Shown here one piece after another: positions 4,561-45,381 of a stretch of DNA of 64,000 nt (positions are counted from its first letter, which is position 1; the number at the start of each line of letters is the position of its first letter). The translations under genes and the position numbers were made by a program. Under the pieces are notes generated by a model, which was not told where the DNA came from, did no database searches, and worked only from the letters and a program-made list of their open reading frames with translations. This stretch comes from Salinispora arenicola (lineage in GTDB: Bacteria; Actinomycetota; Actinomycetes; Mycobacteriales; Micromonosporaceae), in the NCBI RefSeq assembly GCF_006716065.1, contig NZ_VFOL01000001.1:2542001-2606000 (forward strand), in the 5' to 3' direction.

Positions 4561-6720
4561 GTGGTGTCCCACTCAGCCTCCGACCGGGTGCTCGCCGGGC
4601 TCGACCCAGAGCAGCGGGCGGCGGTGACCGCCCCAGCCGGCCCGGTCTGTGTGCTCGCCGGCGCCGGTACTGGCAAGACCCGGGCAGTCACCTCCCGGAT
4701 CGCCCACCGGGTGTTGACCGGGGAAATCCTGTCCCGGCATCTGCTCGCGGTCACTTTCACCGCACGGGCCGCCGCCGAGCTGCGCAGCCGGCTCACCGCA
4801 CTCGGGGTGCCCGGCGTACAGGCGCGAACCTTCCACGCCGCGGCGCTCCGTCAGGTGCGCTACTTCGCGCCCCGGCTGCTCGCCGGTCGGGCGATGCCCG
4901 AGCTGCTGGACAGCAAGGTCCGGCTGGTCACCCTCGCCGCCGCGAAGGTCGGAATCCGCGCGGACCGGACCGGTACCCGGGACCTCGCGGGCGAGATCGA
5001 GTGGGCCAAGTCGTCCCTGGTCGAGCCCGGGGAATACGTGGTCGCGGCGGCCAAGGCGTTACGCGAGACCCCGTACGAGCCAGCGAGAGTCGCCGACGTC
5101 TTCGCCGCGTACGAGCAGGTCAAGCGTTCCGGCGGGGTGATCGACTTCGAGGACATGCTGCGTGCCGCGATCTGGGGCATCGAGGAGCATCCCGACGTGG
5201 CCGACCAGGTACGCGCCCAGTACCGGCACTTTGTCGTGGACGAGTACCAGGATGTGAACCCGCTCCAACAACGGCTGTTGGAGGCGTGGCTCGGCGGCGG
5301 AGACGACCTGACCGTGGTGGGTGACGCGAGCCAGACCATCTACTCGTTCACCGGCGCGACCTCCTCCTATCTGGTCGACTTCCCGCGCCGGCACCGCAGT
5401 GCGACCGTGGTCCGCCTGGTGCGTGACTACCGGTCCACCCCCCAGGTGGTCGGGTTGGCCAACGCGGTGATCTCACCAGCCCGGGGCTCCGAGGCTCGGT
5501 TGCGGTTGGAGTTGGTCGGCCAGCGCCCACCAGGCCCCGAGCCCGACCTGCGGATCTTCACCGACGAGCCGGCCGAGGCCGCCGCCGTCGCCGCCCGCTG
5601 CCGGGCCCTGATCGACGCCGGCACGCCGGCCCGGGAGATCGCTGTGCTGTTCCGGACCAACGCGCAGTCCGAGGTGTACGAGAAGGCGCTGACCGAGGCC
5701 GAGGTGCCGTACCAGGTGCAGGGTGCGGAGCGGTTCTTCGAGCGCGTCGAGATACGGCAGGCGATGGTCGCGCTGCGCGCCGCCACCCGCTCCCTCCCCG
5801 GCGGGATCCCACTGCCGGCGGCCGTGGTCGAGGCGTTGGCCGCCGTGGGCTGGGCGCCGGATACGCCACCGGCCGGTGGCGCCGCCCGCGAGCGGTGGGC
5901 GGCTCTCGCCGCGCTGGTCCAACTCGCCGAGGAGTACGCGGCCGCCGCGCCGGTGGTGCCGATCGGGCCGGCCGCCGCGGTCGAACGCCCGGCCACCCTG
6001 GCCGACTTCACCGACGAGCTGGCTCGACGTGCCGCCGCCCAGCACGCGCCGACGGTCGAGGGCGTGACGCTCGCCTCCCTGCATTCGGCGAAGGGCCTGG
6101 AATGGGATGCCGTCTTTCTGGTCGGCCTCGCCGAGGGCACTCTGCCCACCCTGTACGCGAAGACACCGGAGCAGGTGGAGGAGGAACGCCGGTTGCTCTA
6201 CGTGGGCATCACCCGGGCCCGAGAGTGGCTCTGGCTGTCGTACGCGTCGGCCCGTTCGCCCGGGGGACGGCCCCGGCGGCCCTGCCGGTTCCTGCCGCGG
6301 CTGAGTCCTTCTGGTGGGAGCGGGCGGGCCGGTGCGGGCGGGGCCCGGCCTAGCGAGCGTCGGCGTACCCAGATCGTTTCCTGCCGGATCTGTGGTGCGA
6401 CCCTGCTCGCCGGCGCGGAGCGCAAGCTGGGCCGGTGCGCCGCCTGTCCGTCCGACATCGACGAGGAGCTGCACGGGCGGCTGCGCGAGTGGCGGCGTCG
6501 GACGGCCGCCGGTCAGCGGGTGCCGGCCTACGTGGTGTTCACCGACGCGACCCTGGTCGCGTTGGCTGAGCGGCGCCCTCAGCAGCCCCGTGACCTCACT
6601 GCGATCGCTGGGATCGGGGCCCGCAAGCTGGGGCTCTACGGCGAGGCGGTGCTGGCGCTGGTAGCCGGCGCGGCGGTGGACGAGGTCTGCCCGGAGAGAA
6701 CTTCGGAAATCTTGCCGTAA
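4561..6720 (+). CDS. uvrD2: ATP-dependent DNA helicase UvrD2
   Basis: 719-aa superfamily 1A helicase for DNA repair. Visible motifs: Walker A LAGAGTGKTR (about 32-41), DEYQDVNP (about 225-232), VVGDASQTIYSFTGA, and VTLASLHSAKGLEWDAVF with LYVGITRAREWL in the C-terminal half. After the motor it has a tetracysteine zinc module (CRICGATLL...CAAC, about 609-630) and a C-terminal HRDC domain (about 640-705). That architecture is diagnostic of actinobacterial UvrD2. GTG start, divergent from mycoredoxin. Confidence 0.95.
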   Translation: MVSHSASDRVLAGLDPEQRAAVTAPAGPVCVLAGAGTGKTRAVTSRIAHRVLTGEILSRHLLAVTFTARAAAELRSRLTALGVPGVQARTFHAAALRQVRYFAPRLLAGRAMPELLDSKVRLVTLAAAKVGIRADRTGTRDLAGEIEWAKSSLVEPGEYVVAAAKALRETPYEPARVADVFAAYEQVKRSGGVIDFEDMLRAAIWGIEEHPDVADQVRAQYRHFVVDEYQDVNPLQQRLLEAWLGGGDDLTVVGDASQTIYSFTGATSSYLVDFPRRHRSATVVRLVRDYRSTPQVVGLANAVISPARGSEARLRLELVGQRPPGPEPDLRIFTDEPAEAAAVAARCRALIDAGTPAREIAVLFRTNAQSEVYEKALTEAEVPYQVQGAERFFERVEIRQAMVALRAATRSLPGGIPLPAAVVEALAAVGWAPDTPPAGGAARERWAALAALVQLAEEYAAAAPVVPIGPAAAVERPATLADFTDELARRAAAQHAPTVEGVTLASLHSAKGLEWDAVFLVGLAEGTLPTLYAKTPEQVEEERRLLYVGITRAREWLWLSYASARSPGGRPRRPCRFLPRLSPSGGSGRAGAGGARPSERRRTQIVSCRICGATLLAGAERKLGRCAACPSDIDEELHGRLREWRRRTAAGQRVPAYVVFTDATLVALAERRPQQPRDLTAIAGIGARKLGLYGEAVLALVAGAAVDEVCPERTSEILP

Positions 6721-6756
6721 ATTCGTTTGCCCTCGCCCCAGGATGCGGCATAGCCT
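6718..6756 (+). promoter_or_regulatory. candidate WhiB7-type promoter of whiB7
   Basis: An AT-rich patch TAAATT (6718-6723) sits directly upstream of a -35-like TTGCCC (6727-6732), with a -10-like TAGCCT (6751-6756) 18 bases on; an alternative -10 is CATAGC at 6749. WhiB7 is known to act at promoters with a short AT-rich element just upstream of the -35. Such an element abutting the end of uvrD2 fits autoregulation. Confidence 0.5.
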
Positions 6757-6842
6757 CGGGGCACACCTCGCGAGCGGCGGTATTAGGGCTGCTCACGAGC
6801 GTGATCAGGTCGGCACGAGGGAACGTCAGGGAGGTGGCACCA

Positions 6843-7097
6843 ATGGAGATCTACAGCAACGGGCGTCCAGTGGCGCTGCTTACTGCCGTCACGTCGTTGT
6901 CGGCTGTCCAGGTGGCCCTCGCCACTGCGCGACCGTCGGTTCCGCAGGTGCACCAGGCCGGGATTCAGGCCGAGCTGACTCCCGCGCTGGCGCCGTACGG
7001 GATCCAGGAGACCAGTGGCTTCACGGGCAAGGGCGTTGATGGTGCCAAGCGGCGCATGGACGTCCGCGGTGTTCCACCTCGAGGTAGACCGGTCTGA
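6843..7097 (+). CDS. upstream ORF in the whiB7 leader, 84 aa
   Basis: ATG preceded by GGGAGGTGG, encoding MEIYSNGRPVALLTAVTSLS and ending GVPPRGRPV. It resembles no enzyme family. It lies wholly within the roughly 460-nt leader between the predicted whiB7 promoter and whiB7. Its last codons (7077-7085) form one arm of a predicted antiterminator and its stop lies inside that structure. I therefore read it as a regulatory leader ORF that reports translation, as described for mycobacterial whiB7; it could also make a stable small protein. Confidence 0.65.
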   Translation: MEIYSNGRPVALLTAVTSLSAVQVALATARPSVPQVHQAGIQAELTPALAPYGIQETSGFTGKGVDGAKRRMDVRGVPPRGRPV

Positions 7098-7122
7098 TAC
7101 AGACCACCGGCTCACCTCGAGG
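7074..7122 (+). promoter_or_regulatory. predicted antiterminator of the whiB7 attenuator
   Basis: CCTCGAGGT (7077-7085) is the exact reverse complement of ACCTCGAGG (7114-7122), enclosing a smaller hairpin GGTCTG/CAGACC (7091-7096 with 7100-7105). The 3' arm shares GAGG (7119-7122) with the 5' arm of the downstream terminator, so the two folds exclude each other. A ribosome finishing the upstream ORF would cover the 5' arm and favour termination. Confidence 0.6.
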
Positions 7123-7166
7123 CCGCGGAACCCGCATACCGGGATCCGCGGCCTCAGTTTTTGTTT
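7119..7166 (+). terminator. intrinsic terminator of the whiB7 leader
   Basis: Perfect 11-bp stem GAGGCCGCGGA (7119-7129) with TCCGCGGCCTC (7145-7155), extended by an inner CCCG/CGGG pairing and followed by AGTTTTTGTTT. A T-run this clear is rare in such G+C-rich DNA. It lies 58 nt before the whiB7 start, between the leader ORF and whiB7. Confidence 0.8.
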
Positions 7167-7223
7167 CGAAGTACGTCGGAAATGCGATCTACAAGATCGA
7201 AGTGAGAGAGAGGTGACCGGGCA

Positions 7224-7586
7224 ATGAGTCTGGCGTTGGCCCCGCTCGACCTGAGTGTCGAGCTGGAGGCGAACCTGCCTTGCCGGAAGTTCGACCCCGA
7301 CCTGTGGTTCTCCGACTCGCCCACCGAGCTCGAGCTGGCCAAGTCGCTCTGCGGGGACTGCCCGCTGCGCGTCGAGTGCCTCGCCGGCGCGGTGGAGCGA
7401 GCCGAGCCCTGGGGCGTCTGGGGTGGCGAGATCTTCGAGCGTGGCGCGGTGGTTCCGCGCAAGCGGCCCCGTGGCCGTCCGCGTAAGGAGGATGTCGCCC
7501 GAGATGCCACGCTCCGGGTCGAGGCCGAGGCGCGACTGGCGGCCAGTGGGCTGGCCCGGCGCGAAGCGGTCCGGCTGGCGGCCTGA
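7224..7586 (+). CDS. whiB7: WhiB7, antibiotic-resistance regulator
   Basis: 120-aa Fe-S transcription factor. The four cluster cysteines are C20, C43, C46 and C52. They are followed by EPWGVWGGE (61-69), the WhiB7-specific form of the G-W-G-G turn, and a C-terminal AT-hook RGRPRK (83-88). WhiB7 binds the primary sigma factor and activates intrinsic drug-resistance genes when translation is inhibited. Neighbours uvrD2 and the ABC1 kinase match the M. tuberculosis locus. ATG with GAGAGAGGTG upstream; expression is predicted to be controlled by the leader attenuator. Confidence 0.95.
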   Translation: MSLALAPLDLSVELEANLPCRKFDPDLWFSDSPTELELAKSLCGDCPLRVECLAGAVERAEPWGVWGGEIFERGAVVPRKRPRGRPRKEDVARDATLRVEAEARLAASGLARREAVRLAA

Positions 7587-7649
7587 CAACCACCCGATCT
7601 GTCCTACCCCTCGCCGGTGTCCGCACCGGCCGCGAGAAAGTTGACGAGG

Positions 7650-7826
7650 ATGTACCACCGTTCGCACGAGATGGAACTGCAACTACTCCACGAAGCGTTG
7701 TCGAGGGCTCGAATGCTCCGGCCTCAGGCCGGTCGCACCACCGCGAGCACTGAGGCATATCGTTCCGCCCGTACCGTTGCCATGGCTGCCCACAGGCGGT
7801 CGGCGCGCGAGATGGGCAGTCTCTAG
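7650..7826 (+). CDS. small basic hypothetical protein, 58 aa
   Basis: Starts MYHRSHEMELQLLHEALSRA at an ATG preceded by GACGAGG. It is mostly helical, Arg- and Ser-rich, without cysteines or a membrane segment. It lies 63 bp after whiB7 on the same strand and just before a strong bidirectional hairpin, so it could be read through from whiB7. Function unknown. The 11 residues upstream in the frame lack a ribosome site. Confidence 0.6.
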   Translation: MYHRSHEMELQLLHEALSRARMLRPQAGRTTASTEAYRSARTVAMAAHRRSAREMGSL

Positions 7827-7880
7827 GAAGGCGTGCTCGACGCCTTCGGGATAGGCACGAACGTCGGTTGACACCGTTGC

Positions 7881-7916
7881 GACGGGCGCGTCCGGTCAAT
7901 GCCGGACGCGCCCGTC
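7881..7916. terminator. bidirectional hairpin terminator
   Basis: Perfect 15-bp stem (GACGGGCGCGTCCGG and its complement, 6-nt loop) between the convergent small ORF and the ABC1 kinase gene. Confidence 0.75.
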
Positions 7917-7922
7917 AGCGCA

Positions 7923-9269
7923 TCAGCGGACCGGGGCGAAGCCGGGTAGCCAGCGTTCCAGGATCCCCCGGTACGGCGCCTTCGCCTCCAGCTGACAGAG
8001 CACCCCGATAGAGCCGAGCGTGACCCGGTGGATCAGCAGGTATGACGGGGGCAGGTTGAGGTGCCGGCTCAGCTGGTACGCGGGCGAGCGAGGGTTGGCC
8101 AGCCGGGTCGCCTCGGCCCGCAGCCAGGCCCGGGTGAACCGGAATTCCTCGGCGGCGATCGGCTCCAGCATCGGCTGTAGGAAGTCCAGCAGCGCCTGAC
8201 CATCGATCGTCTCGTTGGTGCTGACGAAGCCCTCGTCGCGAAGGCCGGTCATCACCTCTGCGGCGTCTCCGCGCAGTGCCAACCCGGCGATGCGGCCGAT
8301 CGGCTCGGGCGTCCCCTCGGGCAGCCGGGCCACCGCCCCGAAGTCGACCACCCCGAGCCGGCCATCGGGCAGCAGCCGGAAGTTACCCGGGTGCGGATCG
8401 GCGTGCAGCAGTCCGGCCCGCATCGGTGCGGACAGGTGCAGGGTGGCCATCAACCGGCCTGCCTCGTTCCGGTCCTGTTCGGAGCCGTCCCGGATGATCT
8501 GCGAGAGCGGAGTTCCGTCGACCCACCCGGTCACGAGGACCCGAGGCGATGCGGCGACCACCGCCGGGACGTAGATTTCCGGGTCGTCCGCGTACGCCGT
8601 GGCGAAGGCCCGTTGCGATTCGGCCTCCAGCTCGTAGTCGAGTTCCTCGGTGATCCGTTCACGCAGCTCGGCCAGGAGCGGCTTGACGTCCAGCCCTGGC
8701 TGGACCGCCCGGAGCATCCCGCCGAGCCGGGAGAGCTGCTTGAAATCGGCGAGGAGGGCATCGCCTGCACCTGGATACTGAATCTTGATCGCGACGTCGC
8801 GGGTGTGCGGCGCGCCGGCAGCGTCGTACCCCGGCTCCCGCCACCGGGCGCGGTGCACCTGCCCGATGCTGGCGGCGGCAACAGGTATGTCATCGAACTC
8901 TATGAATCGATCTCGCCAGTCCGGACCGAGTTGCTCGGCGAGCACCTTGTGCACGGAGGCGGCGGGTAGCGGTGGCGCGGCCTCCTGAAGTCGGGTCAGC
9001 GCCTGTCGGTAGGGGGCGGCGATCTCCTCGGGCAACGCCGCCTCGAAGACCGACAGCGCCTGACCGAACTTCATCGCACCGCCCTTGAGCTGCCCGAGGA
9101 CGCTGAAGAGCTGTTCGGCAGTGCGTTGCTGGATCTCCGCCGAGATCACGTCGGAGGCGAGCCCGGTGACGCGTTTACCCATGCCGAGGACGGTCCGGCC
9201 GGCGAAGCCGAGCGGCAGAGCGGCGAGCTTGGCGGTCCGGGAGACGGCCCGGCGCGGGATTTCGGTCAC
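7923..9269 (-). CDS. ABC1/UbiB-family atypical kinase
   Basis: 448-aa ABC1 (AarF/UbiB/ADCK) protein kinase-like ATPase. Seen: GMGKRVTGLASD near the N-terminus, the family KxGQ motif as KFGQALS, the catalytic-lobe motif HADPHPGNF and VVDFGAV (metal-binding DFG). The start GTG at 9269 gives a protein beginning V-T-E-I-P-R-R; this fits M. tuberculosis Rv3197, which sits beside whiB7 and has nearly the same length. Upstream extension to 9422 is low-complexity. Biological substrate unknown. Confidence 0.9.
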   Translation of the reverse strand: MTEIPRRAVSRTAKLAALPLGFAGRTVLGMGKRVTGLASDVISAEIQQRTAEQLFSVLGQLKGGAMKFGQALSVFEAALPEEIAAPYRQALTRLQEAAPPLPAASVHKVLAEQLGPDWRDRFIEFDDIPVAAASIGQVHRARWREPGYDAAGAPHTRDVAIKIQYPGAGDALLADFKQLSRLGGMLRAVQPGLDVKPLLAELRERITEELDYELEAESQRAFATAYADDPEIYVPAVVAASPRVLVTGWVDGTPLSQIIRDGSEQDRNEAGRLMATLHLSAPMRAGLLHADPHPGNFRLLPDGRLGVVDFGAVARLPEGTPEPIGRIAGLALRGDAAEVMTGLRDEGFVSTNETIDGQALLDFLQPMLEPIAAEEFRFTRAWLRAEATRLANPRSPAYQLSRHLNLPPSYLLIHRVTLGSIGVLCQLEAKAPYRGILERWLPGFAPVR

Positions 9270-18139: not shown

Positions 18140-18150
18140 TTACGAGCCGA

Positions 18151-18224
18151 CGCGGGGTGGAGCAGCTCGGTAGCTCGCTGGGCTCATAACCCAGAGGTCG
18201 CAGGTTCAAATCCTGTCCCCGCTA
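18151..18224 (+). tRNA. initiator tRNA-fMet (CAU), copy 1
   Basis: 74-nt cloverleaf with anticodon CAT in loop CTCATAA. It is an initiator rather than an elongator tRNA: the anticodon stem has three consecutive G:C pairs (GGG/CCC) and position 1 (C) cannot pair with position 72 (T). T-loop GGTTCAAATCC. CCA is not encoded. An identical copy lies about 950 bp downstream. Confidence 0.95.
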
Positions 18225-18230
18225 CTCGTT

Positions 18231-18263
18231 CGAAGGCCCCGGAGGTTTCCTCCGGGGCCTTCG
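18231..18263 (+). terminator. terminator of initiator tRNA copy 1
   Basis: Perfect 15-bp stem CGAAGGCCCCGGAGG with loop TTT, 6 bp after the tRNA. The same stem follows copy 2. Confidence 0.8.
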
Positions 18264-18307: not shown

Positions 18308-18895
18308 TCAGCCGGGCCCGCCGGCGTGCCGGGTGTAGCGCAGGACGACCACGCCACTGTCGAAGGGCCGCGTTGAGGTAAGCGCGAAACGGTGAGGGTC
18401 GAAGCCCCGGTCGACCAGCGGGATGCCGCTGCCGACGACGACCGGGTTGAGCTTGAGCACAAGTTCGTCGACGTCGTCGAGGAGCTGGCCGGCGAGCTGT
18501 CCGCCACCGCAGAGCCAGATGTCGCGCCCGGGCTGTGCCTTGAGCTGGCGGACGAATGCTGTCGGATCGCCGGAGACGATCTCCACACCAGGGTATTCGG
18601 CAGGGGTGAGCGACCGGCTGAAGACGTACTGCTTCAGGTGGTCGTAGGGGCTGGTGTATCCGAGCTTGAGGCCCGGCTCGTAGGTGACACGGCCCATCAG
18701 CACGGTGTCGAAACGACCGGCGGCGGGGGATGCGACACCGAGCTGGGCGTGGGTGAACGTGGGTAGCGTCTGGGGCCATTCGGCCACCAGATAGGGCGCC
18801 ACATCGGGCTCCAGGGAAAGGAAGTCGAACGACCCGTCGGGCGCGGCGATGAAGCCGTCGAGTGTGACGGCGACGAAGTACACAAGCTTACGCAA
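18308..18895 (-). CDS. dihydrofolate reductase-fold (RibD C-terminal) protein
   Basis: 195-aa protein of the RibD C-terminal/YyaP-YwjB group. Family features: KLVYFVAVTLDGFIAAPDGS at the N-terminus, DTVLMGRVTYE, and DIWLCGGGQLAGQLLDDVDE (nucleotide-binding Gly motif). Probably an NADPH-dependent reductase of unknown substrate. Start uncertain: the chosen TTG at 18895 follows GGAG by 6 bases and gives the normal family N-terminus, while an in-frame alternative lies at 18922. It is antisense to, and sits between, the duplicated initiator tRNA genes. Confidence 0.85.
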   Translation of the reverse strand: MRKLVYFVAVTLDGFIAAPDGSFDFLSLEPDVAPYLVAEWPQTLPTFTHAQLGVASPAAGRFDTVLMGRVTYEPGLKLGYTSPYDHLKQYVFSRSLTPAEYPGVEIVSGDPTAFVRQLKAQPGRDIWLCGGGQLAGQLLDDVDELVLKLNPVVVGSGIPLVDRGFDPHRFALTSTRPFDSGVVVLRYTRHAGGPG

Positions 18896-19098
18896 AGCGA
18901 CTCCGATGTTCGGGGGGTCCACAAAGGCGATCGTGGATCGGCGCGAATCTACAACACCTGCCGTGGACGTTGGTGGGATTTCCTCCGTGTGACGGAGGGT
19001 CCGGCAGCGCTAGCCGATGCCGGCCCCGCGGCTCGTGCCGCCCGGGGCCGGGGGTGCGGATCATGGCCGGGCCGGATGGGGTACAGTAATGAGGCCGA

Positions 19099-19172
19099 CG
19101 CGGGGTGGAGCAGCTCGGTAGCTCGCTGGGCTCATAACCCAGAGGTCGCAGGTTCAAATCCTGTCCCCGCTA
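19099..19172 (+). tRNA. initiator tRNA-fMet (CAU), copy 2
   Basis: Identical over all 74 nt to the copy at 18151, with the same initiator hallmarks (C1 opposite T72, three G:C pairs below the anticodon loop). A -10-like TACAGT lies at 19082-19087; no clear -35 is visible. Confidence 0.95.
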
Positions 19173-19178
19173 CTCGTT

Positions 19179-19211
19179 CGAAGGCCCCGGAGGAATCCTC
19201 CGGGGCCTTCG
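19179..19211 (+). terminator. terminator of initiator tRNA copy 2
   Basis: Same 15-bp stem as after copy 1, with loop AAT instead of TTT. Confidence 0.8.
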
Positions 19212-29176: not shown

Positions 29177-29572
29177 ATGACCAGGGCGCGGATGCCCCGT
29201 CCACACGAAGTGGCCGCTGCACGACGTGACGCGCGCCTGGTGCGGGCGTTACACGAGCGTCGACGGGATGACGCATGGCGCACCAGAGGCCGCTGCCAGA
29301 GCGTCGACCCGGAAACCTTCTTTCCGGCGCCGAACGAGCCGGCCGACGCCGCGGTGGCGCTCTGTCGCACCTGTGACGTTCAGGGGTCCTGCCTCGCGTG
29401 GGCGCTGGATGTCGGCGACTGCTACGGCGTCTGGGGCGGCACCACCGCGCGCGAGCGCCGGGCCATGCTGGTCGCCTGGCGTACTGCGGCCCAGCCGGAT
29501 CCGGAGCCGACCGACCCCGCGGCACCGTTGGTCCGGAAACGGCAGCTCACCCTGGTGCCACTCGGCCGCTGA
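29177..29572 (+). CDS. WhiB-family Fe-S regulator
   Basis: 131-aa WhiB-like protein with cysteines C40, C63, C66, C72 and the turn YGVWGGTTARERR. Basic N-terminal helix (AAARRDARLVRALHERRR). There is no AT-hook like WhiB7 and it is longer than WhiB1, so the subfamily is uncertain. ATG at 29177 behind GGGAGGTGGG. The upstream 190 bp are comparatively A+T-rich and should hold its promoter. It lies upstream of the hydrolase and sigR. Confidence 0.9.
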   Translation: MTRARMPRPHEVAAARRDARLVRALHERRRDDAWRTRGRCQSVDPETFFPAPNEPADAAVALCRTCDVQGSCLAWALDVGDCYGVWGGTTARERRAMLVAWRTAAQPDPEPTDPAAPLVRKRQLTLVPLGR

Positions 29573-45123: not shown

Positions 45124-45381
45124 TCAGGCGGAGTGAGCGCGCAGCATCCGGAGGCCGCCGCGACGCTTGACGGCGCGCCGCTCCTCCTCGCTCATTCCGC
45201 CCCAGACGCCTGCGTCCTGACCGGACTCGAGGGCCCACTGCAGGCACTGGTCCGTCACCGGACAGCGCCGGCAGACGGCCTTGGCCTGCTCCACCTGCAG
45301 CAGGGCCGGACCTGACGTCCCGATCGGGAAGAACAGCTCTGGGTCCTCGTCGCGGCAGACAGCATGATGACGCCAGTCCAT
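45124..45381 (-). CDS. whiB1: WhiB1 Fe-S regulator
   Basis: 85-aa WhiB1/WblE protein starting MDWRHHAVCRDEDPELFFP. Cluster cysteines at C9, C37, C40 and C46 are placed exactly as in M. tuberculosis WhiB1. The turn is DAGVWGGMSEEERR, with a basic C-terminus RAVKRRGGLRML. Essential in mycobacteria and nitric-oxide responsive. ATG at 45381, as in orthologues; a GAGGAG lies 10 bases upstream, and an in-frame ATG at 45399 is less likely. Confidence 0.95.
   Translation of the reverse strand: MDWRHHAVCRDEDPELFFPIGTSGPALLQVEQAKAVCRRCPVTDQCLQWALESGQDAGVWGGMSEEERRAVKRRGGLRMLRAHSA

What the first reader, a model, noticed from the sequence alone, without database searches (positions are those of the whole stretch)
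6718..7223. Translation-sensing attenuator in the whiB7 leader
Seen: an 84-aa upstream ORF ending at 7097; a 9-bp pairing 7077-7085/7114-7122; a perfect 11-bp terminator stem 7119-7155 with a T-run. The two structures share 7119-7122 and cannot coexist. Known: mycobacterial whiB7 is controlled by a leader ORF and attenuation. Inference: a ribosome completing the ORF masks the antiterminator arm and stops transcription, while stalling by antibiotics lets whiB7 be made. The leader ORF seems unusually long and its last codons are themselves the switch arm.
Basis: partly seen in the sequence, partly recalled or inferred. Interest (0 to 1): 0.7.

Follow-up and report, generated by a model that had tools for sequence, protein, structure and literature searches.

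The report
Ribosome-sensing switch before whiB7 gene
In a soil bacterium of the genus Micromonospora, the RNA leader of an antibiotic-response regulator (whiB7) carries a small upstream reading frame and two competing RNA folds that would let the regulator be made only when ribosomes falter; it is a well-conserved example of a switch already described in related bacteria.

Summary
The features are real. An 84-codon uORF (6843-7097, strong SD) ends just before the only perfect stem of 11 or more pairs with a T-rich tail in the window, 68 nt upstream of whiB7. Comparison supports function: the terminator core is in 208 of 217 actinomycete whiB7 leaders; uORF arm and terminator change together between Mycobacteriales-type and other leaders; in Micromonospora 12 of 12 uORF gap runs are multiples of three, against 2 of 24 outside it. 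The peptide evolves almost freely (pN/pS 0.84; whiB7 0.11) except for the arm codons, so ribosome progress rather than a special peptide seems to be read. 84 codons is about the median (85), long only beside mycobacteria. The mechanism is published for mycobacteria and Streptomyces; this is a new member. Within the family arm I shows no compensatory change, and equilibrium folding favours the terminator. A possible extra: whiB7's ribosome-binding site is complementary to the antiterminator's 3' region (both motifs in 101 of 119 family leaders), without covariation support. No expression data were available.

The parts
6717..6756 (+). Promoter-like element GTAAATTCG-TTTGCC-N19-TAGCCT; resembles the published WblC/WhiB7 autoregulated promoter (AT-rich box just upstream of -35)
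   Evidence: Only match of this pattern in the own genome (the pattern was taken from this site). Printed for 26 leaders, where a similar box is seen by eye in the family. Box described in PMC7157823 (passage). No consensus sigma-70 site was found by the scan tool.
6830..6836 (+). Shine-Dalgarno sequence of the uORF (GGAGGTG)
6843..7097 (+). Upstream ORF, 84 codons plus TGA
   Evidence: gap runs in 50 Micromonospora uORFs 12 of 12 multiples of three; pN/pS 0.84 without the last 14 codons
7063..7069 (+). Antiterminator arm I (TCCGCGG), inside the uORF; pairs with 7123-7129
   Evidence: minimum-energy fold of 7055-7134; co-change with the terminator between lineages; no change on both sides within the family, 89.1% of cells paired
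7077..7085 (+). Antiterminator arm II (CCTCGAGGT), inside the uORF; pairs with 7114-7122
7089..7110 (+). Stop-codon hairpin (inner stem 7091-7096 with 7100-7105, outer CC 7089-7090 with GG 7109-7110); contains the uORF stop
   Evidence: in the family 3 of 6 inner pairs have changes on both sides
7114..7129 (+). 3' strand of the antiterminator; 7119-7129 is also the 5' arm of the terminator
7119..7162 (+). Intrinsic terminator: stem 7119-7129 with 7145-7155, inner stem 7131-7134 with 7140-7143, T-run 7158-7162
   Evidence: core in 208 of 217 leaders
7107..7118 (+). Stretch CCGGCTCACCTC complementary to the whiB7 ribosome-binding site
7210..7220 (+). whiB7 ribosome-binding site GAGGTGACCGG
   Evidence: motif GGTGACCGG downstream of the terminator in 107 of 119 family leaders
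7224..7586 (+). whiB7 orthologue (120 aa, WhiB domain, RGRPRK motif)
   Evidence: best matches in 61 of 61 genus and 146 of 150 family genomes

Best explanation
This is the Micromonospora copy of the actinomycete whiB7/wblC uORF attenuator. Transcription would start shortly after 6756 (inferred). A ribosome that translates the uORF to its stop covers arm II and the stop hairpin, so the terminator forms and transcription ends near 7162. If ribosomes stall or slow before about codon 69, both uORF arms can pair with 7114-7129, take the whole 5' arm of the terminator, and RNA polymerase reads on into whiB7, whose product probably activates its own promoter. Shown here: the parts, their conservation, selection on the frame but hardly on the residues. 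Inferred: stalling, order of folding, termination and autoactivation.
For: Exact ORF, SD, stems and T-run. Folding only up to 7134 gives the two-part antiterminator, folding to 7163 the terminator. 208 of 217 leaders have the terminator core. Terminator and uORF arm I co-change: of 129 non-redundant leaders, 23 have A in the 5' arm and T in the 3' arm, and 17 of these have TCCGTG in the uORF end (0 TCCGCG, 6 neither); 106 have G and C, of which 18 have TCCGCG, 4 TCCGTG, 84 neither exact string. Pairing of uORF end with the 3' strand is among the best 5 of 100 shuffles in 94 of 125 leaders; window 0 of 1000. Frame kept: 12 of 12 against 0 of 13 and 2 of 11 gap runs. Covariance model: in 25 of 25 genus genomes searched the best hit lies directly upstream of whiB7. 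Same mechanism described for whiB7/wblC in passages of PMC11550727, PMC9618640, PMC10727445.
Against: At equilibrium the terminator state is favoured (-54.6 against -40.3 kcal/mol), and with RNA to 7163 arm I has probability 0.00 at every ribosome position tried, so the antiterminator needs kinetic control that was not simulated. For stalls before codon 66 the predicted availability of arm I varies from 0.01 to 0.97 because free uORF RNA competes for it; with no ribosome it is 0.02. Within the family arm I has no pair changed on both sides, an alternative arm GTTCC 7071-7075 fits nearly as well, and RNAalifold does not find arm I. Number of antiterminator pairs with changes on both sides (5) is hardly above slid controls (up to 4), though cells (17 against up to 4) are. 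31 of 125 leaders do not beat shuffles; swapped arms are uninformative within the family (median rank 0.44). The co-change may be few events.
Confidence: 0.87

Rival explanations
1. Two-layer control: besides transcription attenuation, read-through mRNA hides the whiB7 ribosome-binding site (7210-7220) in pairing with 7107-7118, unless the antiterminator occupies that strand.
For: 11 pairs with one bulged base in the minimum-energy folds that include 7210-7220. Both motifs in 101 of 119 family leaders, GGTGACCGG in 1 of 90 other leaders. CCGG follows the SD core in 35 of 45 non-redundant family leaders, whereas the same place of the uORF site varies. The strand pairs better with the whiB7 site than with the uORF site in 37 of 43; 18 of 2000 and 33 of 2000 shuffles as good. 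In L149 and L181 both sides differ and still complement each other by eye.
Against: Swapping sites between leaders shows no co-change: median rank 0.48 in 80 leaders of other orders, 0.73 in 45 family leaders. Enforcing the antiterminator raises the unpaired probability of the site only from 0.01 to 0.18. In 18 of 119 family leaders one or both motifs are missing. Any SD resembles the complement of CACCTC.
Confidence: 0.2
2. Arrest-peptide sensor: a particular nascent peptide stalls the ribosome in presence of the drug, as in erm leaders.
For: The last residues RGVPPRGRPV are nearly constant in the genus, and many uORFs of other orders end in WSPPV.
Against: pN/pS of the rest is 0.84 (bootstrap 0.73-0.92) against 0.11 for whiB7 and like that of shifted frames in 17 uORFs of equal length (1.01 against 1.08 and 0.79). 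The constant last codons are the RNA arms; where one arm base changes (CCTCGAAG), the residue changes from G to S and the other strand changes with it in 3 of 5 such aligned rows.
Confidence: 0.06
3. Plain terminator of the upstream helicase gene, or another kind of leader RNA (riboswitch), with an accidental ORF.
For: The terminator could also stop transcripts coming from the helicase gene (inference).
Against: Frame-preserving gap runs; stop at a fixed distance before the terminator; no Rfam match at E<=1 in 5000-9000; promoter-like element between helicase and uORF.
Confidence: 0.03

Closest known systems
whiB7/wblC uORF-mediated transcription attenuation (Lee, Lee and Roe 2022, doi 10.1111/mmi.14834, not held; described in passages of PMC11550727, PMC9618640, PMC10727445; earlier PMC4128351)
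   Same: Orthologous gene, translated-looking uORF with SD, intrinsic terminator between uORF and gene, antiterminator built from uORF and terminator sequence, self-activating type of promoter.
   Different: Arm II is CCTCGAGG in this family (CTGGAG-type in many other orders); uORF 84 codons without alanine bias, against mostly 42-52 codons and 29.9% alanine in mycobacteria; possible pairing of the whiB7 ribosome-binding site. Whether Lee 2022 already reports arm I or residue-neutrality I cannot say.
Antibiotic-responsive attenuators of ABCF genes (are5sc, tiaA in PMC12421871, passages; vmlR PMC9226507, title in a search listing)
   Same: Ribosome-mediated attenuation through a uORF; the vmlR title names transcription and translation attenuation together.
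   Different: [quoted passage not shown] here the sensing stretch would be about 69 codons.
Amino-acid attenuators such as ilvB1 (PMC13236596, passages)
   Same: Leader ribosome decides between antiterminator and terminator.
   Different: No run of one kind of codon in this uORF.

Membership tests
whiB7/wblC uORF attenuator | Downstream gene is a whiB7 orthologue | tested here: met
   Pfam WhiB, RGRPRK motif after WGG, best and by far closest match in 61 of 61 genus genomes. NCBIfam gave no family for it.
whiB7/wblC uORF attenuator | uORF in the leader that is kept as a reading frame | tested here: met
   12 of 12 gap runs multiples of three against 2 of 24 outside; SD
whiB7/wblC uORF attenuator | Intrinsic terminator between uORF and gene | tested here: met
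   core in 208 of 217 leaders
whiB7/wblC uORF attenuator | Antiterminator that uses uORF and terminator sequence | tested here: met
   Predicted, conserved and partly co-changing; not seen experimentally, and limits given under evidence against
whiB7/wblC uORF attenuator | Leader-terminated transcript; induction by ribosome inhibitors or amino-acid starvation | not testable with these tools
   needs RNA data
whiB7/wblC uORF attenuator | Autoregulated promoter | tested here: inconclusive
   Promoter-like motif resembling the published one; no binding data
Arrest-peptide (erm-like) leader | Conserved peptide sequence beyond RNA constraint | tested here: not met
Amino-acid (trp/ilv-like) attenuator | Enrichment of codons for one amino acid | tested here: not met
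   Window uORF: A 13.1%, V 11.9%, G 10.7%, P 9.5%; no alanine excess
Any Rfam family | Match to a family model | tested here: not met
   None at E<=1 in 5000-9000. In 8 loci of this and other orders 2 matches at E<=0.1, both far below gathering scores
Translation attenuator | Ribosome-binding site of the gene hidden by the leader | tested here: inconclusive
   Predicted pairing and conservation for, swap tests against

The most novel reading that the evidence does not exclude
In Micromonosporaceae one RNA strand serves three partners: the uORF arms (read-through), the terminator (stop) and the whiB7 ribosome-binding site (7107-7118 with 7210-7220). Leaky read-through RNA that refolds into the terminator shape would keep whiB7 untranslated, so transcription and translation are gated by the same strand. 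Besides, the uORF would be a residue-blind gauge of ribosome progress over about 69 codons, which single lineages (alanine-rich mycobacteria) tune to an amino acid by composition alone.
Probability: 0.2. Interest if true: 0.55.

Novelty: new member of a known kind. Interest (0 to 1): 0.3.

Why it matters
It shows that the whiB7 switch keeps the same three-strand logic across many actinomycete families, and it bears on an open point: the frame is selected while the peptide hardly is, which argues for a gauge of ribosome progress and would explain why uORFs of very different length and sequence can serve. Whether this is the ecological setting of the response in soil actinomycetes is inference. 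The possible hiding of the whiB7 ribosome-binding site is a cheap, testable addition.

Tried and rejected
Rejected: a sequence-specific arrest peptide; an amino-acid codon run; a known Rfam RNA. A second copy of the attenuator in the genomes searched with the covariance model was looked for and not found: among the weaker hits I read two (own genome 1756675-1756746, and one in G202, a genome without a whiB7 match at the threshold); both are hairpins just after gene ends. Many other weak hits are the opposite strand of the same terminator; the rest were not read.

Led nowhere or went against: RNAalifold on 44 family sequences finds the terminator and part of arm II but not arm I. The alternative arm GTTCC 7071-7075 with GGAAC 7127-7131 fits the family about as well (87.2% of cells paired, one pair changed on both sides) as arm I (89.1%, none); I prefer arm I because of the fold and the co-change between lineages, but the alternative is not excluded. 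The swapped-arm test is informative between orders (median rank 0.19, 79 leaders), not within the family (0.44, 46 leaders). Hiding of the ribosome-binding site: swap tests negative. The masked-ribosome scan, done at every fourth codon and at codons 66-84, gives no clean switch for arm I.

Dropped rows: of loci L001-L142, L002-L005 (other WhiB genes) and L114 (motif not met) were left out, which leaves 137; with 80 more fetched leaders there are 217. Of these, 9 lack the core terminator pattern: 2 with no hairpin found and 7 with another hairpin (L133 and L205 doubtful). No uORF was called in 7 of 217. One genome reached by two routes is counted twice in the 217 and in the 119 family leaders; the non-redundant sets are filtered by similarity. 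4 of 129 were dropped and 3 of 129 in the length count. Alignment A1 holds 44 of the 48 non-redundant family leaders; I left out L149, L150, L151 and L181 as too divergent. Of 50 Micromonospora uORFs 49 are distinct and were used for pN/pS. uORF starts were chosen by a score for SD and start codon, so single calls may be wrong.
Full report
WHAT IS THERE. The window lies in a 5.63-Mb genome; the closest named whiB7 found is that of Micromonospora thermarum, 95%. The gene at 7224-7586 is a whiB7 orthologue: Pfam WhiB domain, RGRPRK after the WGG motif, matched in 61 of 61 genomes of the genus and 146 of 150 of the family that were searched. Upstream lies a UvrD/PcrA-type helicase and downstream, on the other strand, a relative of MABP-1/UbiB (the MABP-1 score of 493.5 is below the curated cut-off of 800). 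That mycobacterial whiB7 has similar neighbours is recalled, not tested.

The uORF (ATG 6843, TGA 7095-7097, 84 codons; SD GGAGGTG 6830-6836), the 9-bp pairing and the 11-bp terminator stem with five T are exact. No other perfect stem of at least 11 pairs with a T-rich tail occurs on either strand of the window, and none in ten random windows of the same dinucleotide make-up. The region folds better than all 200 shuffles: z -5.6 with and -3.9 without the terminator's 3' half.

Together they occupy the terminator's whole 5' arm. So the antiterminator could win only by forming first, which was not simulated.

COMPARISON. I collected 217 whiB7 leaders; 208 match the terminator core pattern. Among 129 non-redundant leaders, 23 have A in the 5' arm and T in the 3' arm, and 106 have G and C. 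The uORF end follows: TCCGTG in 17 of the 23 (TCCGCG in none, neither in 6), against TCCGCG in 18 and TCCGTG in 4 of the 106, with 84 having neither exact string. The search pattern allows only C or T at the 3' place, so the agreement inside the terminator is partly built in. Where named, the A/T leaders are Mycobacterium, Mycolicibacterium, Rhodococcus and Gordonia, so few events may lie behind the count; two A/T leaders of other families (L204, L212) lack the exact string, though by eye their uORF ends still complement the arm. For arm II the best complement is 8 of 8 in 60 of 129 and 7 of 8 in 22 more; shuffles give 8 in 1.1% and 7 in 14%. Pairing of the uORF end with the 3' strand is among the best 5 of 100 shuffles in 94 of 125 leaders; 31 are not. 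Own arms beat those of other leaders moderately between orders (median rank 0.19, 79 leaders) and hardly within the family (0.44, 46 leaders).

IN THE FAMILY. On 44 sequences 89.7% of antiterminator cells pair, against 27-41% in slid controls. Changes on both sides occur in 5 of 26 pairs (slid controls up to 4) and 17 cells (slid up to 4), and the number of pair types does not exceed the shuffles (144 of 500 as high). Three of the five pairs lie in the stop hairpin, two in arm II, none in arm I. The terminator: 98.9% of cells, changes on both sides in 4 of 15 pairs (slid up to 1). So in the family the arms are mostly too constant to show covariation.

THE uORF IS A FRAME MORE THAN A PEPTIDE. 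In 50 Micromonospora leaders all 12 distinct gap runs in the uORF are multiples of three, against 0 of 13 in the 5' UTR and 2 of 11 between terminator and gene. Yet pN/pS is 0.84 outside the last 14 codons (bootstrap over taxa 0.73-0.92), 0.30 in the last 14, and 0.11 in whiB7 by the same method; in 17 uORFs of equal length the true frame resembles the shifted ones (1.01 against 1.08 and 0.79). The last codons are those of the two arms and have lowered synonymous change too. This suggests that ribosome progress is read rather than a nascent peptide. PMC12121999 (passage) notes that stalling within the whiB7 uORF had not been tested.

LENGTH AND COMPOSITION. In 126 non-redundant leaders the median uORF has 85 codons (quartiles 71 and 101); 76 have at least 84. 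84 is long only beside the 16 mycobacterial uORFs (42-101, 10 of them 42-52). Those have 29.9% alanine, Micromonospora 14.9%, the neighbouring helicase 17.4%. A link of whiB7 to alanine starvation in mycobacteria is known to me here only from reference titles and citing passages, so the connection is a suggestion.

HOW IT WOULD WORK. With RNA up to 7134 and a leading ribosome masking what lies behind it, arm II is available up to codon 74, 0.65 at 75 and gone from 76; arm I is available (0.96-0.97) at codons 66-69 and lost from 70. For earlier stalls arm I varies between 0.01 and 0.97, because free uORF RNA competes for it; with no ribosome arm II has 0.90 and arm I 0.02. With RNA up to 7163 arm I is 0.00 throughout. 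A ribosome near the stop leaves only the terminator.

SPECIFICITY. A covariance model of the family leader has its best hit directly upstream of whiB7 in 25 of 25 genus genomes (E at most 5.1e-29); 39 of 41 relatives have some match at E<=1 and 22 of 149 genomes of the phylum at E<=0.01. I found no second attenuator, having read two of the weaker hits.

A POSSIBLE SECOND LAYER. The whiB7 ribosome-binding site GAGGTGACCGG (7210-7220) is complementary to CCGGCTCACCTC (7107-7118), with one bulged base. The free and the terminator fold leave it unpaired with probability about 0.01, an enforced antiterminator with 0.18. Both motifs are in 101 of 119 family leaders; 9 have neither, 6 only the site, 3 only the arm. 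Shuffles as good: 18 and 33 of 2000. Against it: no co-change by swapping. I give it 0.2.

LITERATURE. Dinan 2014 (PMC4128351, passages) saw uORF, stem-loop and attenuation in mycobacteria. PMC11550727, PMC9618640, PMC10727445, PMC13393426, PMC12421871, PMC13236596 and PMC7157823 (passages) describe or mention the mechanism, most of them citing Lee, Lee and Roe 2022, which is not held. PMC10727445 says that the antiterminator uses overlapping sequences of the uORF and the terminator. A search for Micromonospora, attenuation and whiB7 together gave 0 papers. So the mechanism is known and this instance is a new member; I cannot say whether arm I or the frame-versus-peptide result is already in Lee 2022.

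VERDICT. Real, probably functional, of a known kind. Interest 0.3.

Noticed in passing
window 18146-18245 and 19094-19193: Two tRNA-Met (CAT) genes in 100 identical bases, 948 bp apart, on either side of an ORF on the other strand (18308-18922) that by eye resembles a dihydrofolate-reductase-type protein (recalled, no family search).
   Followed up: partly
window 7647-7826, + strand: Small ORF (59 aa) just after whiB7 with tblastn matches in 78 of the 142 loci L001-L142 at E<=1e-3 and no Pfam or NCBIfam family.
   Followed up: partly
window 29291-29521 (+) and 45160-45366 (-): Two further WhiB-like matches in the same window (30% and 39% identity to WhiB7).
   Followed up: no
L045, L052, L056, L057, L059, L060, L068 and others (Plantactinospora endophytica is L068): The T-run after the whiB7 terminator is broken (e.g. 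TTAGTCATTTCC) in several genera of the family although the stem is perfect; how well these terminate is unknown.
   Followed up: no
uORFs of other orders, e.g. L188, L191, L202, L206, L214: Many otherwise unrelated uORFs end in WSPPV-stop, because the same bases form arm II and the stop hairpin (CCTGGAGTCCACCGGTCTAG-type).
   Followed up: partly
mycobacterial loci L088-L091, L093, L094, L117, L123, L126, L130, L132, L138-L140, L142, L183: Their uORFs have 29.9% alanine against 14-16% in the other groups, which may fit the alanine-starvation response reported for mycobacteria.
   Followed up: partly
whiB7 leaders in general: The search of Rfam 15 found no family for this widespread leader; a family model could be built (a first one is R1).
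   Followed up: partly
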